A DNA stretch of 64,000 nucleotides. Origin: Candidatus Methylopumilus rimovensis (GTDB lineage: Bacteria > Pseudomonadota > Gammaproteobacteria > Burkholderiales > Methylophilaceae). The stretch is taken from contig NZ_CP040986.1 in the NCBI RefSeq assembly GCF_006364615.1, positions 620,001-684,000 of the forward strand, given 5' to 3'. The notes under the pieces are model-generated. The model made no database searches, was not told the origin of the DNA, and saw only the letters and a list, made by a program, of their open reading frames with translations. Both the position numbers and the translations under genes were made by a program. This document shows positions 51,764 to 58,849 of this stretch, in pieces. How positions within the stretch are numbered: the stretch's first letter is position 1; every line of letters begins with the position of its first letter.

Positions 51764-54322
51764 TTGATTCAAAAAGAAATACTCAATTTAAAAAAAGAAA
51801 TCGCTTTAAATGAGTTAAGCCTCATTAAAGCATTCTTAAAAAAAAGAGATGGTCAGTCTTATCTTGATAATCACTCGCTACTTATTGATAAAGTATTAAA
51901 AAAACTATGGGACGGGCTTGAATTCAAAAATAGCGCCTCTCTTATCGCCTGCGGGGGATATGGTCGCAAAGAATTATTTCCATATTCTGACATCGACTTA
52001 TTAATATTAATTCCAAAGAATCTTAATAAATCCTTAAGTCAAAAAATTGAACAGTTTATTACCTTGGCATGGGATCTTGGTTTAAGAATTGGCCATAGCG
52101 TCAGAAATATTACCGAGACTAAAAGGGAAATTAAAAAAGATATTACGGTGCAAACAAATCTTTTAGAGAGTAGATGTCTTATTGGAGACAAAGGCCTTTT
52201 CAGAGAATTAAAAAAGATCGTTAATGAAACTCTCATTCCCATCCACTTTTATGAAGGCAAAATTAAAGAACAGGCTCTTAGACATCAAAAATATAATCAA
52301 TCTGCATATCAATTAGAGCCAAATATAAAAGAAAGTCCTGGTGGGCTAAGAGATCTCCAAATGATTCAATGGATTGGTAAAAGTCATATCCCAAGATTTA
52401 ATTTACAAAAATTAAATCAAAGAAAAGATCTTGATAAGCAAAATTTTCAGAAGCTTATAAATACTGAGCTCTTTATTAAAAACTTAAGAATTCTTCTTCA
52501 TATCACTGCAAAACAGAATGAAGATAGATTGCTTTTCGACTATCAAAATCAATTAGGTTTACTACTTAACTATAAAAATAGCCCTCATAAAAAAAGAAGT
52601 GAATTATTTATGAGGGACTTTTATAAAGCGATCAATTTCACAACGTACATTAATGAAGTGTTACTTAAAAAGCTTAACCCCAAAAAAATTACTAAGCCAA
52701 GAAAAATTGAAAATAGCGAATTTCTGATTGTTATGGATGGGCATTTAGAGATTGGTTCAAATTTCAAAAATAAATCTATTACACCTCATATATTTGATGT
52801 CTTTATTACTTTTCAAAATCATACATCGCTGAAATCTTTGGGGCCAAAGCTGATGATGCTACTTCAAAATTCCTCAAAAGAAATAAATGAAGCATTTCGA
52901 AAAAATAAAAAACAACAAGAAAAATTCTTATCTATTCTCAAATCGGACAAAAAGGTAAATCGAACGTTAAGGATTATGAATAAATGCAACCTAATCGGCG
53001 CATATATTCCTGCATTTGGAAAAATAGTTGGTCAGATGCAGCATGATTTATTTCATATCTATACAGTGGATGAACATATTCTCAACGTTATTCGTAACTT
53101 AAGAAGATTCGCTAAGGATGAATTGAAACACGAGTTTCCTGACTGTTATGATTTATTCAAAAATTACAAAAAAAAATATGTCTTGTATCTCGCTGCACTA
53201 TTTCATGATATTGCAAAAGGTCGAGGTGGCGATCATTCCGAATTGGGAGCAAAAGATGTTGATGAATTTTCAAAGCTCAATCATTTGCCTCCTGAAGATC
53301 ATAAAATCATCAAATGGCTTGTGAAATCTCACCTTATTATGTCTCATACAGCACAAAAATTAGACCTATCAGATCCTAGAATAATTGAAGATTTTGCAAA
53401 AAAAGTAACAAACAAAGAAAATTTGATTTCACTTTACCTCCTCACAGTTGCAGATATAAGAGCAACAAGCCCTTATGTATGGAACCAATGGAAGGCTATA
53501 CTTCTCAAAAATTTATTTAACTACACTTTAAATTATTTAGAGCAAGATAAGTTGTCTCATGAAGATTCAATTACAAAACGAAAAGAAAAAGCAGCATTAA
53601 TTCTTGAACATTACAATATTAAAAATCATCACTACAAAGTGCTTTGGGAAAATTTTGGGAAAAACTATTTCTACAAATACACTGAAGAAGAAATAGCCTG
53701 GCAGACAAGGTTATTATTTTCACATACAGCACCCACAAAACCAATTATTAGAGTTAGACATCGCTCAAATGGCGAAGGCATAGAAGTTCTTATTTATCAA
53801 AAAAATTCTGCACATATTTTTAACAAAACTTGCCATTTTTTTGATGAAATTGGATATAACATTGCTGCAGCAAAAATATTCACAACTCAACATAATTATG
53901 CATTGAACCTTTTTGATTTGCTTGATGCCAATCCTAAGTCTGTAAGTTACGAAGGGCTCTTTAAATTCATTGAAAAAGAATTAACTAGTCGATTTGAAAG
54001 TCATAAAGAAAATAAGCCTACAAAACTTTCTGAACGAAGTCGTCAAGCGACACATCACTCTTTTGATACGAAAATTTCTATTTCACAGATTGAACAATCC
54101 ACCACTTATCAATTAGATATAATTACTGATGATAGAAATGGGCTATTAAGCCTTATATCTGACCAGCTTTCAAAACAAGATATATCAATTAATGATGCGA
54201 AAATAAATACATTAGGATCGCGCGTAGAAGACACTTTTTTAATTACATATAAAAATAATCAAGCGCTCAAGAAAATAAAAAAAGATAGCCTAGTAAAAAG
54301 ACTGAGGGAATTAATTGAGTAA
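51764..54322 (+). CDS. glnD: Bifunctional uridylyltransferase/uridylyl-removing enzyme GlnD
   Basis: Sensor of glutamine that (de)uridylylates PII proteins. N-terminal nucleotidyltransferase GGYGRKELFPYSDIDLLIL (about residues 65-83), GlnD PII-uridylyltransferase helical region, an HD domain with FHDIAKGRGGDHSELG (around 480-495), and two C-terminal ACT domains (about 675-850, LITDDRNGLLSLISDQL-type). The 852-residue protein starts at TTG (51764), just after the map stop. Its presence implies PII-based nitrogen control, although glnB is not in the window. Confidence 0.95.
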   Translation: MIQKEILNLKKEIALNELSLIKAFLKKRDGQSYLDNHSLLIDKVLKKLWDGLEFKNSASLIACGGYGRKELFPYSDIDLLILIPKNLNKSLSQKIEQFITLAWDLGLRIGHSVRNITETKREIKKDITVQTNLLESRCLIGDKGLFRELKKIVNETLIPIHFYEGKIKEQALRHQKYNQSAYQLEPNIKESPGGLRDLQMIQWIGKSHIPRFNLQKLNQRKDLDKQNFQKLINTELFIKNLRILLHITAKQNEDRLLFDYQNQLGLLLNYKNSPHKKRSELFMRDFYKAINFTTYINEVLLKKLNPKKITKPRKIENSEFLIVMDGHLEIGSNFKNKSITPHIFDVFITFQNHTSLKSLGPKLMMLLQNSSKEINEAFRKNKKQQEKFLSILKSDKKVNRTLRIMNKCNLIGAYIPAFGKIVGQMQHDLFHIYTVDEHILNVIRNLRRFAKDELKHEFPDCYDLFKNYKKKYVLYLAALFHDIAKGRGGDHSELGAKDVDEFSKLNHLPPEDHKIIKWLVKSHLIMSHTAQKLDLSDPRIIEDFAKKVTNKENLISLYLLTVADIRATSPYVWNQWKAILLKNLFNYTLNYLEQDKLSHEDSITKRKEKAALILEHYNIKNHHYKVLWENFGKNYFYKYTEEEIAWQTRLLFSHTAPTKPIIRVRHRSNGEGIEVLIYQKNSAHIFNKTCHFFDEIGYNIAAAKIFTTQHNYALNLFDLLDANPKSVSYEGLFKFIEKELTSRFESHKENKPTKLSERSRQATHHSFDTKISISQIEQSTTYQLDIITDDRNGLLSLISDQLSKQDISINDAKINTLGSRVEDTFLITYKNNQALKKIKKDSLVKRLRELIE

Positions 54323-54441: not shown

Positions 54442-54975
54442 TTAATCATCTTGAAGGTCTGAATTGGGAAATAAAACTTCAGAAAATCCAAAATTACTCA
54501 AATCCTCAATCTTCATAGGATAAAGAATACCATCTAAATGATCACACTCATGCTGAACGACGCGCGCATGAAAATCAGTAACTGTGCGATCAATTGGATT
54601 CTGATTCAAATCATAGCCTTGATAACGAAGTTTTTTAAATCTTGGCACTAAGCCCCTCATGCCAGGAACGGAAAGACACCCCTCCCATCCACTTTCTATA
54701 TCATCATCAAGAAAAGTAAGTTTTGGATTAATTAAAATAGTGTATGGCACTTCTTCTACGTCTGGATATCGCGGAGTCTTTTTAATACCAAAAATGACAA
54801 CCCTTAGGCTCACGCCTATTTGAGGTGCTGCTAAGCCTGCGCCATTTAAAGAATGCATAGTATCTTGCATATCTTCAATCAAATTTTTTAATGCGCGACT
54901 TTTGAAATCATGAATTGGCTCTGCAACTTTCAAAAGCAGCGGATCGCCCATTTTTAACACTTGTCTTATGGTCAT
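54442..54975 (-). CDS. def: Peptide deformylase
   Basis: Iron-type metallopeptidase removing the N-formyl group from nascent proteins. Motif 1 GAGLAAPQIG, motif 2 WEGCLSVPGM (Cys ligand) and motif 3 QHECDHLDG (HExxH) are intact. The 177-residue length is normal for type 1 enzymes. The ATG directly follows the mtiP stop, and tRNA-Ser lies downstream. It is not paired with fmt here. Confidence 0.97.
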   Translation of the reverse strand: MTIRQVLKMGDPLLLKVAEPIHDFKSRALKNLIEDMQDTMHSLNGAGLAAPQIGVSLRVVIFGIKKTPRYPDVEEVPYTILINPKLTFLDDDIESGWEGCLSVPGMRGLVPRFKKLRYQGYDLNQNPIDRTVTDFHARVVQHECDHLDGILYPMKIEDLSNFGFSEVLFPNSDLQDD

Positions 54976-55731
54976 TTAGTTTTTTGAAACAATTGTTTGA
55001 ATCAGTCTAATTACATCAATCATCATATGTTGGCAAACATCATTATCACAAAGCTCATTAATACTAGAAAATGAAATAGCATCTTTACTTTGACCTCTTC
55101 CAGCGGCGTGATTTACCATAGGGCATATGGCTGCATATGCAATATTAAGTTCTTTTGCCAAAGCCGCTTCAGGCATTCCAGTCATACCAACGATATTAGC
55201 ACCGTCTTTTTCAAGACGATTTATTTCGGCTGCAGTTTCTAATCGAGGTCCCTGCACTGCCGCATAAACACCTTCAGTCACCACTGTTTTTAATAAAGCC
55301 TGTGCAGAAGTAATAATTTGTTTTCTTAAAGATTCATCATATGGATAAGTAAAATCTATGTGCTTAACTGGCATTTCAGCGCCATCAAAATAAGTATTTT
55401 TACGGCCATATGTATAATCAATAATTTGACTGGGAATACATATAGCGCCTGGTTTAACTGCTTCATCGATTACGCCGACAGTAGCTACGGATATGATTTT
55501 CGTAACTCCCACCGATTGAAGAGCCCAAATGTTCGCACGATAATTAATTTCATGAGGCGGTATTGTATGGCCCGAGCCATGACGAGCTAGAAAAACAATA
55601 TTTTTATTGGATAATGATCCAAAAATGAGCGGCTGAGAAGGTTCTCCATAAGGTGTTCTAATAAGCTCACGCTTTAATACTTTTAATTCATGTATAGAAG
55701 CTAATCCCGTGCCACCAATAATTCCAAACAT
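54976..55731 (-). CDS. mtiP: Purine nucleoside phosphorylase family: probable S-methyl-5'-thioinosine phosphorylase
   Basis: Phosphorolyses the thiomethyl nucleoside from polyamine/SAM metabolism. The PNP/MTAP fold is seen in IGGTGLASI (phosphate), RHGSGHTIPPHEINYRANIWAL, QGPRLETAAEI and VGMTGMPEA. In MTA phosphorylases the base-recognition Asp residues sit in a TDYDCW-like segment. Here the matching segment is VNHAAGRG with Asn207 and Ala, as in the Pseudomonas methylthioinosine phosphorylase (VNPAAG, from memory). So hypoxanthine is the likely base, requiring an MTA deaminase elsewhere. MtnP is the alternative name. Confidence 0.82.
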   Translation of the reverse strand: MFGIIGGTGLASIHELKVLKRELIRTPYGEPSQPLIFGSLSNKNIVFLARHGSGHTIPPHEINYRANIWALQSVGVTKIISVATVGVIDEAVKPGAICIPSQIIDYTYGRKNTYFDGAEMPVKHIDFTYPYDESLRKQIITSAQALLKTVVTEGVYAAVQGPRLETAAEINRLEKDGANIVGMTGMPEAALAKELNIAYAAICPMVNHAAGRGQSKDAISFSSINELCDNDVCQHMMIDVIRLIQTIVSKN

Positions 55732-55782: not shown

Positions 55783-56643
55783 ATGAGGATTACACAAAAC
55801 ATAAAGAACCAATACAAAATCAAGCAAACAAAGAAGCATTATGAAAATTTTACTGTAGGCTCATTAGTTCTTGGTATAGAAATGAAAGAGGCTATTACCA
55901 CCTTGTATGCTTTTGCTCGTCTCGGTGACGATATTGCTGATGAAGGAAATAAATCTAAGAAAGACCGTCTTAAAGAAATAAAATATCTTAAAGATCATCT
56001 AAAAAAAATTGAAAAAAATCAAAAAATTAACGACCCATATTTTAAAATATTAAAAAAAATACTTATTAAATATAATATAAAAATCAGTAACTTATATAAA
56101 TTTATTAATGCTTTTAATAAAGATATTAATCATAAACAATACTCTAGATTTAATGGCCTAATCAAATATTGTGAGGATGCAGCGAACCCAGCTGGTGAAC
56201 TTATTTTAAGCCTTGCAAAAAAAGATAATAAAGAAAATATTCGCAAATCTAATGCGATTTGTACGGCGTTAGCACTTATTAATTTCGCTCAAGGGGCTGT
56301 TGAAGATTATAAAAAAGGTCGAATTTATTTTCCAAAAGACGAGATAAAAGAATTTAATCTAAATATCAAAGATATCGAAAAAAGAAACTTTTCAGCTCAA
56401 TGGATAAGATATAAAAAATTTTGGGTTAATCGAAATTACCAAATCCTTAAGGAAGGCTTAGGGCTTGGAAAAAAAATAAAAGGTAGGCTTGGCTTGGAAA
56501 TACAAATGATTGAGCTTGCAGCGCTTTTATTAGTAGAAAGAATGAAAAAAAATGACTGTAATTTATTCATTAACCCACCTAAAATTAAAACATTAGATTG
56601 GATATTCATATTCCTTAAAGCTGCAACCCTAAAACTATCATGA
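55783..56643 (+). CDS. hpnC: HpnC-like squalene/phytoene synthase homolog
   Basis: All-helical trans-isoprenoid synthase family, 286 residues. In the HpnC-D-E route HpnC hydrates presqualene diphosphate to hydroxysqualene. The N-terminal HYENFTVGSLVLG resembles the HpnC HYENFPVAS signature. The first Asp-rich motif is complete (DDIADE, 49-54). The second, usually QDVAxD, reads QGAVEDYKKGRIYFP, so the first Asp is Gly171 and Asp175 remains. The gene is unusually Lys/Asn-rich compared with its neighbours. hpnD overlaps its stop by 4 bases. Activity is uncertain. Confidence 0.8.
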   Translation: MRITQNIKNQYKIKQTKKHYENFTVGSLVLGIEMKEAITTLYAFARLGDDIADEGNKSKKDRLKEIKYLKDHLKKIEKNQKINDPYFKILKKILIKYNIKISNLYKFINAFNKDINHKQYSRFNGLIKYCEDAANPAGELILSLAKKDNKENIRKSNAICTALALINFAQGAVEDYKKGRIYFPKDEIKEFNLNIKDIEKRNFSAQWIRYKKFWVNRNYQILKEGLGLGKKIKGRLGLEIQMIELAALLLVERMKKNDCNLFINPPKIKTLDWIFIFLKAATLKLS

Positions 56644-57497
56644 CTCCTATTCAATATTGCTACGAGAAGGTTAAAGAGAGTAAATCAAATTTCACGTGGA
56701 CTTTTTACTTTATAAGTAAAAACAGGCGAGATGCCCTTGTGTCGCTTTACGCATTTTGTAGGGAAATTGATGATATTGTTGATAACACAATCGATCTCGA
56801 AGTAGCAACAGCAAAAATAAATTGGTGGAAAAATGAAATAAATCGATTATTTCATGAAACACCGCAACATCCAGTGACAAAGTCACTTTTAAAGTTTATT
56901 GGTACCTATGAACTTAATGAGGCCTATTTCATAGAAATGCTAGATGGTATGGAAATGGATTTAAAATTTAATCGCTACGAAAGTTTTAAACAGCTCCAAC
57001 TTTATTGCTATAGAGTTGCAGGCGTAGTAGGCATACTATGCGTCAAAATATTAGGCTTTAAAAATCAAGGGACTTTAAAGTTTGCTCATGATTTGGGTAT
57101 TGCGCTTCAACTCACAAATATTATTCGTGACGTTGGAGAAGATGCAAGAAAAAATAGAATCTATATTCCACTCGATGAACTTCATCAATTCAATGTATCT
57201 GAAAATGACATTTTAAGATTTCAAGAAAATAAAAATGTATCAAACTTATTGATTTATCAAATTGAGCGTGCAGAAAATTTTTATAAGTCTGCTTATGAAA
57301 AAATCCCTAAAGAAGATATAAATTCACAGATTCCTGGCTTACTTATGGGAAAAATTTATGAAACATTACTGCTTGAGATTAAAAGGGATCAGCCAGAACA
57401 AACACTCAATCGCAAGGTAATCCTCCCGCCTTTTAGGAAGATGCTCGTCATATTTAAATGCTTCTTTAAAAATAAATTTTATGCTTTAAGCAGTTGA
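56640..57497 (+). CDS. hpnD: Presqualene diphosphate synthase HpnD
   Basis: Condenses two farnesyl diphosphate molecules to presqualene diphosphate. Both Asp-rich motifs are intact: REIDDIVD (Asp44, Asp45, Asp48) and RDVGED (Asp164, Asp168), with YCYRVAGVVG and NRIYIPLDEL as in HpnD. The 285-residue length is normal. It is translationally coupled to hpnC. The FAD enzyme HpnE, usually the third gene, is not downstream: the next gene is radA on the opposite strand, overlapping hpnD by 19 bases. Confidence 0.9.
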   Translation: MTPIQYCYEKVKESKSNFTWTFYFISKNRRDALVSLYAFCREIDDIVDNTIDLEVATAKINWWKNEINRLFHETPQHPVTKSLLKFIGTYELNEAYFIEMLDGMEMDLKFNRYESFKQLQLYCYRVAGVVGILCVKILGFKNQGTLKFAHDLGIALQLTNIIRDVGEDARKNRIYIPLDELHQFNVSENDILRFQENKNVSNLLIYQIERAENFYKSAYEKIPKEDINSQIPGLLMGKIYETLLLEIKRDQPEQTLNRKVILPPFRKMLVIFKCFFKNKFYALSS

Positions 57498-58849
57498 AGT
57501 GCTTGAGAAAGATATTCAATACCCATGACATCAATTCCTGCAATCTTTTGTTTAGCAATATTTGCTTTGGGAATGATAGCTCGTGTAAAACCTAATTTTG
57601 CAGCTTCTTTGATACGCTCTTGACCTCTTTGAATAGGTCTTACCTCGCCTGCTAAACCGACCTCACCAAAAATAATTGTTTTTTGATTGATAGGTTGATT
57701 TTTAAACGATGAAACAATAGCACATAAAATAGCAAGATCTACACCTGGCTCAGTAATCTTGACACCACCTACCGCATTTACAAAAACATCTTGATCAAAG
57801 CATGCGATGCCGCCATGTCTATGCAATACGGCAAGAAGCATGGAAAGTCGATTCTGCTCCAAACCAACACCTAAGCGTTTAGGCGATGCTCCATGCGCAT
57901 TATCAACAAGCGCTTGAATCTCAATAAGAAGTGGTCTCGTTCCTTCTTGAGTTACTGTAATACATGATCCAGAAACCTCTTCATGATGATGTGACAAAAA
58001 TAGTGCGGAAGGATTTGTCACTTCTCGCAAACCTTTCTCGGTCATAGCAAATACACCAAGCTCATTGACAGCGCCAAATCTATTTTTAAATGCGCGTACC
58101 ATTCTAAAGCTCGAGTTTTGATCACCTTCGAAATAAAGCACAGTATCTACAATATGCTCTAGCACGCGAGGACCTGCTAATGAACCTTCTTTTGTAACGT
58201 GGCCAACTAAAATCATGCTCACTTCTAATTGTTTTGCAATGCGCGTCAATTGTGCTGAACATTCTCTGACTTGAGTAACTGAACCAGGTGCTGATTGCAA
58301 CTCTTCCGAATAAATTGTTTGAATAGAATCAATAACAACAACATCGGGTTTATTTTTTTCAATCGATTGAATAATTTTTTCTAAATTTATTTCAGACAGG
58401 ATAAAAATATCTGAGACTTCTAGCTCTAAACGTTTTGCTCGCATAGCTATCTGTTGCGGTGACTCTTCGCCACTTACGTAAATAACTTTGCATGGCGCCT
58501 GACTTTTATCATTAGTCATATGTGAAAGCGCCTGAATAAGTAGTGTCGATTTTCCAATACCAGGATCTCCACCAATTAATACGACGCCCCCAGGAACAAA
58601 ACCACCGCCTAGAACTCGATCAAATTCACTTATACAGGTCGTTCTCTTATAAACGGCTGACATTTTAACTTCGTTAAGTTTTTTTAGTTCTGAGGTTTGT
58701 GTCAGAGATGCATATCGACTAGGCATAGAAGCCTCAATAATACTTTCTGCCATGGTATTCCATGTCATGCAATGTGGGCATTGCCCCTGCCATTTGGTCG
58801 ATTGACCGCCGCATTCAGTGCAAACAAATGCAATCTTATTTTTGGCCAT
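57479..58849 (-). CDS. radA: DNA repair protein RadA (Sms)
   Basis: RecA-related helicase involved in branch migration and recombination repair. The N-terminal C4 zinc finger is CTECGGQSTKWQGQCPHC, the Walker A is GGDPGIGKSTLLIQ, and the RadA-specific KNRFG motif is seen in FKNRFGAVNELGVFAM. A C-terminal Lon-like region with FGEVGLAGEVRPI follows. At 456 residues it is complete. It overlaps alr by 14 bases and hpnD (convergent) by 19 bases. Confidence 0.97.
   Translation of the reverse strand: MAKNKIAFVCTECGGQSTKWQGQCPHCMTWNTMAESIIEASMPSRYASLTQTSELKKLNEVKMSAVYKRTTCISEFDRVLGGGFVPGGVVLIGGDPGIGKSTLLIQALSHMTNDKSQAPCKVIYVSGEESPQQIAMRAKRLELEVSDIFILSEINLEKIIQSIEKNKPDVVVIDSIQTIYSEELQSAPGSVTQVRECSAQLTRIAKQLEVSMILVGHVTKEGSLAGPRVLEHIVDTVLYFEGDQNSSFRMVRAFKNRFGAVNELGVFAMTEKGLREVTNPSALFLSHHHEEVSGSCITVTQEGTRPLLIEIQALVDNAHGASPKRLGVGLEQNRLSMLLAVLHRHGGIACFDQDVFVNAVGGVKITEPGVDLAILCAIVSSFKNQPINQKTIIFGEVGLAGEVRPIQRGQERIKEAAKLGFTRAIIPKANIAKQKIAGIDVMGIEYLSQALQLLKA

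What the first reader, a model, noticed from the sequence alone, without database searches (positions are those of the whole stretch)
55783..56643. HpnC with an altered second Asp-rich motif
The usual QDVAxD reads QGAVED (Gly171), while the partner HpnD has both motifs intact. The gene is also Lys/Asn-rich and more A+T-rich than its neighbours. It may be catalytically changed, a heterodimer partner, or on the way to loss.
Basis: partly seen in the sequence, partly recalled or inferred. Interest (0 to 1): 0.5.

Follow-up and report, generated by a model that had tools for sequence, protein, structure and literature searches.

The report
Rewired squalene enzymes without reductase
In a group of tiny-genome methanol-eating water bacteria, two of the three squalene-making genes are kept while the third was not found, and one kept enzyme has a changed metal-binding site, so they may make a fat-like molecule other than squalene.

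Summary
The window lies in a 1.28 Mb single-contig genome, most likely Ca. Methylopumilus (Methylophilaceae). Its HpnC has Gly171 in place of the first Asp of the second motif. Gly171 is in 13 of 13 readable HpnCs of this genus (g1) and 0 of 193 others aligned. In the 168 HpnCs outside g1 and its sister genus g2, Q164, N167, D171 and D175 never vary. In g1 and g2 Q164 is Ala in 38 of 38; g1 then lost D171, while g2 changed N167 instead (Gly 17, Asp 8 of 25). No HpnE passes its cut-off in any of the 47 g1/g2 genomes; hpnD lies against radA where some relatives carry hpnE between. No hopene cyclase was found in them, nor another squalene synthase in the window's genome. HpnD motifs are intact. 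hpnC looks functional (median dN/dS about 0.20, twice that of ordinary hpnC). Best reading: HpnD still makes presqualene diphosphate, and an altered HpnC turns it into a terminal product other than squalene. A non-catalytic HpnC, one that stops at hydroxysqualene, or slow decay remain possible. No product was measured. New variant of a known kind.

The parts
55783..56643 (+). hpnC-derived gene, 286 aa, altered second Asp-rich motif
55927..55944 (+). codons 49-54, first Asp-rich motif DDIADE, intact
56272..56274 (+). codon 164, Ala; Gln in 168 of 168 HpnCs read outside the two streamlined genera
56281..56307 (+). codons 167-175, triad N167 - Gly171 (Asp elsewhere) - D175
56293..56295 (+). codon 171, ggg, Gly instead of Asp
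56640..57497 (+). hpnD, presqualene diphosphate synthase, both motifs intact; 4-base overlap with hpnC
56682..56684 (+). hpnD codon 15, Lys; Gly in 66 of 66 HpnDs of other family genera and the order sample (4 of 7 in family f18); aligns with CrtM Ser19
57479..57497 (.). 3' ends of hpnD and radA overlap here; in five relatives' loci hpnE lies between these two genes
54976..55731 (-). mtnP-like phosphorylase, conserved upstream neighbour; the next ORF (54442-54975) is def; names from hand reading
57479..58849 (-). radA, downstream neighbour; name from hand reading

Best explanation
The pair is a vertically inherited remnant of the hpnCDE squalene pathway that was rewired in the common ancestor of two streamlined genera. 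Shown: no HpnE or hopene cyclase is found in these genera, hpnE is missing from its place between hpnD and radA, and the window's own genome has only one other SQS/PSY protein, in the carotenoid cluster. Shown: HpnC in these genera has Ala instead of Gln164 and a changed ligand in the N167-D171-D175 triad, a different one in each genus, but keeps the first Asp motif, D175, R180 and Y182, and is under purifying selection. Inferred: HpnD still joins two farnesyl diphosphates to presqualene diphosphate (PSPP). The altered HpnC still binds the diphosphate through its first motif and releases a different terminal product (for example presqualene alcohol, a rearranged C30 alcohol or, as in the SQS-fold phosphatase YisP, a simple alcohol), so no reductase is needed.
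For: HpnE passes its cut-off in 0 of 47 g1+g2 genomes and 125 of the other 140. Hopene cyclase is in 3 of 187, none of them g1/g2. Synteny: radA starts within about 85 bases of hpnD in all 38 g1/g2 loci that reach it (2 do not), whereas in five loci of g7, g15, g18 and g19 it starts 1.3-1.5 kb further on with hpnE between. Own genome: three SQS/PSY genes; three flavin amine-oxidase-family hits, read by hand as CrtI, a DUF1365-neighbour protein and GltD. Q164-N167-D171-D175 in 168 of 168 outside; A-N-G-D in 13 of 13 g1; A-G-D-D 17 and A-D-D-D 8 of 25 g2. Control: family f18 has HpnCs with lower scores than ours and an HpnE-like gene (below cut-off) next door in 8 of 8 genomes, and keeps all four positions in 8 of 8. 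Median dN/dS: HpnC 0.201 (g1, 75 pairs) and 0.194 (g2, 27); HpnD 0.088 and 0.084; other genera HpnC 0.105, HpnD 0.101. HpnD position 15, where a review places a PSPP-stabilising Arg, is Lys/His/Arg in 38 of 39 g1/g2 HpnDs. In human SQS, mutation of Asp219 and Asp223 of the second motif abolishes function (passage of PMC10378455).
Against: No product, activity or ligand-bound structure was obtained. HpnC dN/dS is twice that of ordinary HpnC, so part of the change may be relaxed constraint. g1 and g2 probably share one hpnE loss, so the link between missing HpnE and a changed triad rests on few independent events. Loss of a motif Asp can abolish catalysis, which favours the non-catalytic rival. 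Eleven of 15 HpnD-like proteins from order genomes without a recognised HpnE also depart from Q-N-D-D, so loosening of this motif may simply follow loss of the pathway. E174, present in 34 of 38 g1/g2, might replace the lost ligand, but Glu or Gln is there in f18 too. That the triad binds metal in HpnC is carried over from SQS-type enzymes.
Confidence: 0.43

Rival explanations
1. HpnC has become a non-catalytic partner of HpnD, as the small subunits of some heteromeric prenyltransferases are; HpnD alone does the chemistry and PSPP or a product of it is the end.
For: The two genes overlap or nearly abut in g1/g2. A second-motif Asp is lost. A review describes prenyltransferase small subunits that lack the DDxxD motif (passages of PMC7839719).
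Against: The first Asp motif is kept in 35 of 35 and D175, R180 and Y182 in 38 of 38, more than a scaffold seems to need. The same 4-base overlap is common in ordinary genera, so it is no special sign. SQS-type enzymes act as monomers (recalled).
Confidence: 0.2
2. The chemistry is unchanged: HpnC still makes hydroxysqualene, which is now the end product or is reduced to squalene by CrtI standing in for HpnE.
For: CrtI belongs to the same flavoprotein family and is the strongest such hit in the genome. HpnE loss alone would leave hydroxysqualene.
Against: It does not explain loss of Q164 in 38 of 38 and of D171 or N167, invariant in 168 of 168 elsewhere. G103 (genus g16) has HpnE and a third, unclassified SQS/PSY protein that may be CrtB, so a carotenoid gene set may not by itself replace HpnE.
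Confidence: 0.2
3. hpnC is decaying after hpnE loss and Gly171 is one step of it.
For: dN/dS is doubled against ordinary hpnC; Lys/Asn drift and low G+C. In G046, another genome without a recognised HpnE, hpnC has lost both motifs while a separate SQS-like gene and a hopene cyclase are present. HpnD-like proteins in other HpnE-less genomes also have loosened motifs.
Against: dN/dS of 0.2 is far from 1; the frame is open in 37 of 38, with G027 a likely assembly error; both genes persist in two genera with small genomes; the first motif does not vary.
Confidence: 0.12

Closest known systems
HpnC, hydroxysqualene synthase (TIGR03464; PDB 4hd1)
   Same: Locus, partner gene, fold (Z 25.9, rmsd 2.9 over 252 residues), first motif
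   Different: Below the family cut-off; Q164A and D171G; no recognised HpnE; 31.5% mean identity of g1 to other family genera, which are 61.5% alike
CrtM, dehydrosqualene synthase
   Same: Fold (Z up to 26.3); takes PSPP on without a separate reductase (PMC7839719, passages)
   Different: Second motif RDVGED in the S. aureus chain shown; 16-18% identity; one enzyme does both half-reactions
YisP, FPP phosphatase of Bacillus subtilis (PDB 3we9)
   Same: SQS fold (Z 18.9); once taken for a squalene synthase, makes farnesol (PMC8144471, PMC10148934, passages)
   Different: Distant; its motif residues were not compared here
Heteromeric prenyltransferases (GPPS large/small subunit, HexPPS)
   Same: Paired synthases, one without the usual Asp motifs (PMC7839719, passages)
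   Different: Head-to-tail enzymes; no complex shown here

Membership tests
HpnC hydroxysqualene synthase | Curated TIGR03464 score (250.45 bits) | tested here: not met
   235 bits; 0 of 47 g1/g2 genomes pass
HpnC hydroxysqualene synthase | Orthologous locus next to hpnD | tested here: met
HpnC hydroxysqualene synthase | First Asp-rich motif | tested here: met
   DDIADE; 35 of 35 in g1/g2 keep D49, D50, D53
HpnC hydroxysqualene synthase | Second Asp-rich motif NxxxDxxxD | tested here: not met
   NxxxGxxxD; Asp in 168 of 168 outside g1/g2
HpnC hydroxysqualene synthase | HpnE in the genome to finish squalene | tested here: not met
HpnC hydroxysqualene synthase | SQS-type fold | tested here: met
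   AlphaFold2 pLDDT 89.0, 4hd1 Z 25.9
HpnC hydroxysqualene synthase | Makes hydroxysqualene from PSPP | not testable with these tools
   needs enzyme assay
HpnD presqualene diphosphate synthase (partner) | TIGR03465 score and both motifs | tested here: met
   301.6 against 278.6 bits; motifs intact
CrtB phytoene synthase | Curated NCBIfam score | tested here: not met
   64.7 against 550 bits
YisP-type FPP phosphatase | Releases farnesol from FPP | not testable with these tools
   needs enzyme assay

The most novel reading that the evidence does not exclude
Streamlined methylotrophs of lakes and coasts (Ca. Methylopumilus, OM43) make a terminal C30 lipid that is neither squalene nor a hopanoid, through a two-enzyme HpnD plus altered HpnC route in which one metal ligand was dispensed with, by a different residue change in each genus, after hpnE was lost.
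Probability: 0.38. Interest if true: 0.75.

Novelty: new variant of a known kind. Interest (0 to 1): 0.55.

Why it matters
Genomes of this kind shed genes, yet keep these two after losing the enzyme that gives them their textbook purpose. If the product is new, it would be a membrane or signal lipid of abundant plankton and would show how an SQS-fold enzyme changes outcome by losing a metal ligand. It also warns annotators: such genes may be labelled 'squalene synthase' although the last step was not found. That ordinary members of the family carry hpnCDE but almost never a hopene cyclase is itself unexplained.

Tried and rejected
Sequencing error: rejected by 13 of 13 conservation. Pseudogene: disfavoured by dN/dS; the frame is broken in one of 38 (G027, where hpnD and mtnP are broken too). 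Horizontal replacement of the pair: disfavoured by conserved flanks and by the HpnD tree, where g1+g2 form one clade (99) that groups with g7, g15, g18 and g19 (99). That tree is not clean: two rows of family f19 also fall inside the family on a long branch. The HpnC tree puts g1+g2 (96) beside other divergent HpnCs, not inside the family; I read that as long-branch attraction. Divergence alone as cause of the triad change: disfavoured by the f18 control, 8 of 8. Arg residues near 131, 132 and 139 were first taken as fixed in ordinary HpnC; the full set shows that 131 and 139 vary (R 70 and 92 of 125), so I draw nothing from them. A basic residue at HpnD position 15 as a general mark of HpnE-less HpnDs: rejected, 16 of 18 HpnD-like proteins lifted from weak-scoring genomes have Gly. 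Not every relative has radA behind hpnE: of eight ordinary loci that reach past hpnE, five show it and three (L082, L085, L086) show no radA in the roughly 0.7 kb left. Literature: the listings of searches (20 of 179 shown; 12 of 17 shown) name no paper on these altered pairs; only an open-licence library was searched, and Pan 2015, PMC9907078 and Feng 2014 were not held. dN/dS is a Nei-Gojobori count on pairs with dS 0.05-1.2 that are not independent. Trees were 'quick' searches with long branches flagged. No model coordinates were available to measure the metal site.

Full report
What was checked. The ORF at 55783-56643 is HpnC-like and reads QGAVED where other HpnCs read QDVAxD or similar. 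HpnD follows with a 4-base overlap and intact motifs. The gene is A+T-rich and Lys/Asn-rich as stated, though the ORF at 51764-54322 has windows nearly as A+T-rich.

Where it is. The window is part of a single-contig 1.28 Mb genome. Three named relatives found by protein search are MAGs titled Betaproteobacteria (two) and uncultured Methylophilaceae (one). The genome carries crtY, crtB, crtI, a prenyl diphosphate synthase, a Blh dioxygenase and two bacteriorhodopsin-family genes together (the crt names are from hand reading). Salcher et al. 2019 (PMC6794327, passages) describe two rhodopsins beside the retinal cluster in Ca. Methylopumilus, and only one rhodopsin in marine OM43. In that paper's main text the terms squalene, hopanoid, hpn and phytoene had no hits.

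The pathway is incomplete. In 187 genomes of the family, HpnE passes its cut-off in 125, all among the 140 outside g1 and g2; none of the 47 g1/g2 genomes passes, the best match being 52.8 bits. Eleven of the 47 are single-contig assemblies; many others are incomplete. Hopene cyclase is in 3 of 187. In five relatives' loci (L080, L081, L083, L087, L088) the order is mtnP, hpnC, hpnD, hpnE, radA; in 38 of 38 g1/g2 loci that reach radA it lies within about 85 bases of hpnD. Three other ordinary loci (L082, L085, L086) show no radA in the short stretch read behind hpnE. The HpnD tree keeps g1+g2 as one clade with g7, g15, g18 and g19. So hpnE was most likely lost in place from a vertically inherited cluster. 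The own genome holds three SQS/PSY proteins (HpnC, HpnD and one in the carotenoid cluster) and no hopene cyclase.

The altered site. I read 125 HpnCs of other family genera, 35 of other families of the order and 8 of the divergent family f18: Q164, N167, D171 and D175 are present in 168 of 168. Of the 125 family genomes 121 pass for HpnE; G167 has a piece cut at a contig end, and in G119, G150 and G182 HpnC itself ends at a contig edge. Of the 35 order genomes HpnE was searched only in five (f19; all pass). In g1, 13 of 13 read A-N-G-D; in g2, 17 of 25 read A-G-D-D and 8 of 25 A-D-D-D. Ser133 became Ala in 37 of 38. So Gln164 was probably lost once and the triad then altered differently in each genus. 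Family f18 is the control: its HpnC scores are below ours, it has an HpnE-like gene, below the curated cut-off, next to hpnD in 8 of 8 genomes (aligned in pieces in G425 and G330), and it keeps all four positions in 8 of 8. Of 60 strongly conserved HpnC columns g1 keeps 41, g2 31 and f18 43; of 73 HpnD columns g1 and g2 keep 65 each and f18 53. The streamlined lineages thus changed HpnC much more than HpnD.

A result that cuts both ways. HpnD in clusters keeps Q-N-D-D in 112 of 112 rows that cover it. Of 18 HpnD-like proteins lifted from weak-scoring order genomes, 15 come from genomes without a recognised HpnE, and 11 of those 15 depart from Q-N-D-D; the three from genomes with HpnE keep it. 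So a loosened second motif goes with missing HpnE more widely than in this family. That supports a link with the pathway's end, but also the decay rival.

Selection. Median dN/dS for HpnC is 0.201 (g1) and 0.194 (g2), for HpnD 0.088 and 0.084; in other genera 0.105 and 0.101 (14 pairs each). Neighbours in g1: radA 0.010, mtnP 0.066. HpnC is constrained, but less than elsewhere; partial relaxation also fits.

Structure. AlphaFold2 gives pLDDT 89.0 for this HpnC and 90.6 for a canonical one, with the same helices around the site. The best solved matches are HpnC 4hd1 and dehydrosqualene synthases. In human SQS the second motif is 219DYLED223, and mutation of Asp219 and Asp223 is reported to abolish function (PMC10378455, passage); D171 lines up with the first of these (inference through the family motif).

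Partner. HpnD position 15 aligns with CrtM Ser19. A review says that Arg15 of a bacterial HpnD, at the place of CrtM Ser19, helps stabilise PSPP formation, and that Ser19 to Arg slows dehydrosqualene formation (PMC7839719, passage). Here it is Gly in 66 of 66 HpnDs of other family genera and the order sample, Gly in only 4 of 7 f18 HpnDs, and Lys, His or Arg in 38 of 39 g1/g2 HpnDs. That hints at a stronger stop at PSPP; it is a lead, not a proof.

How it most likely works. HpnD makes PSPP (inferred). HpnC binds it through the conserved first motif but, without the full second metal site, ends in another product (inferred). No reductase or cyclase follows (none found in this genome). A SQS-fold protein that works as a phosphatase exists: YisP (PMC8144471, PMC10148934, passages).

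Comparison and novelty. By place and descent it is HpnC; by score, second motif and missing HpnE it should not be filed as a hydroxysqualene synthase. The listed searches show no description of such pairs in the open library. I rate it a new variant of a known kind.

Noticed in passing
Family f1, 187 genomes: 125 of 187 genomes pass for HpnE but only 3 for hopene cyclase; Methylotenera mobilis is reported to make no bacteriohopanepolyols (PMC11844350, passages). What squalene does in this family is unexplained.
   Followed up: partly
L084, L153, L167 (G046): A genome of genus g8 has a hopene cyclase, a separate SQS-like protein (343 aa, below the SQS cut-off), an intact HpnD, no recognised HpnE, and an HpnC that lost both Asp motifs.
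   Followed up: partly
L154 (G036), also G037: A squalene-synthase-like gene lies next to hopene cyclase in G036; neither of these two incomplete genomes shows an HpnC-strength match or HpnE.
   Followed up: no
L138, L139, L143-L151: Eleven HpnD-like proteins from order genomes without a recognised HpnE have departures in the Q-N-D-D positions, such as ILNVRDD or IVAIGHD.
   Followed up: partly
L127-L133, L136 (family f18): Highly divergent hpnCDE clusters with HpnC and HpnE below their cut-offs but an intact HpnC second motif.
   Followed up: partly
L156:3875-10859: Retinal and carotenoid cluster with two bacteriorhodopsin-family genes and a Blh dioxygenase in the window's genome.
   Followed up: partly
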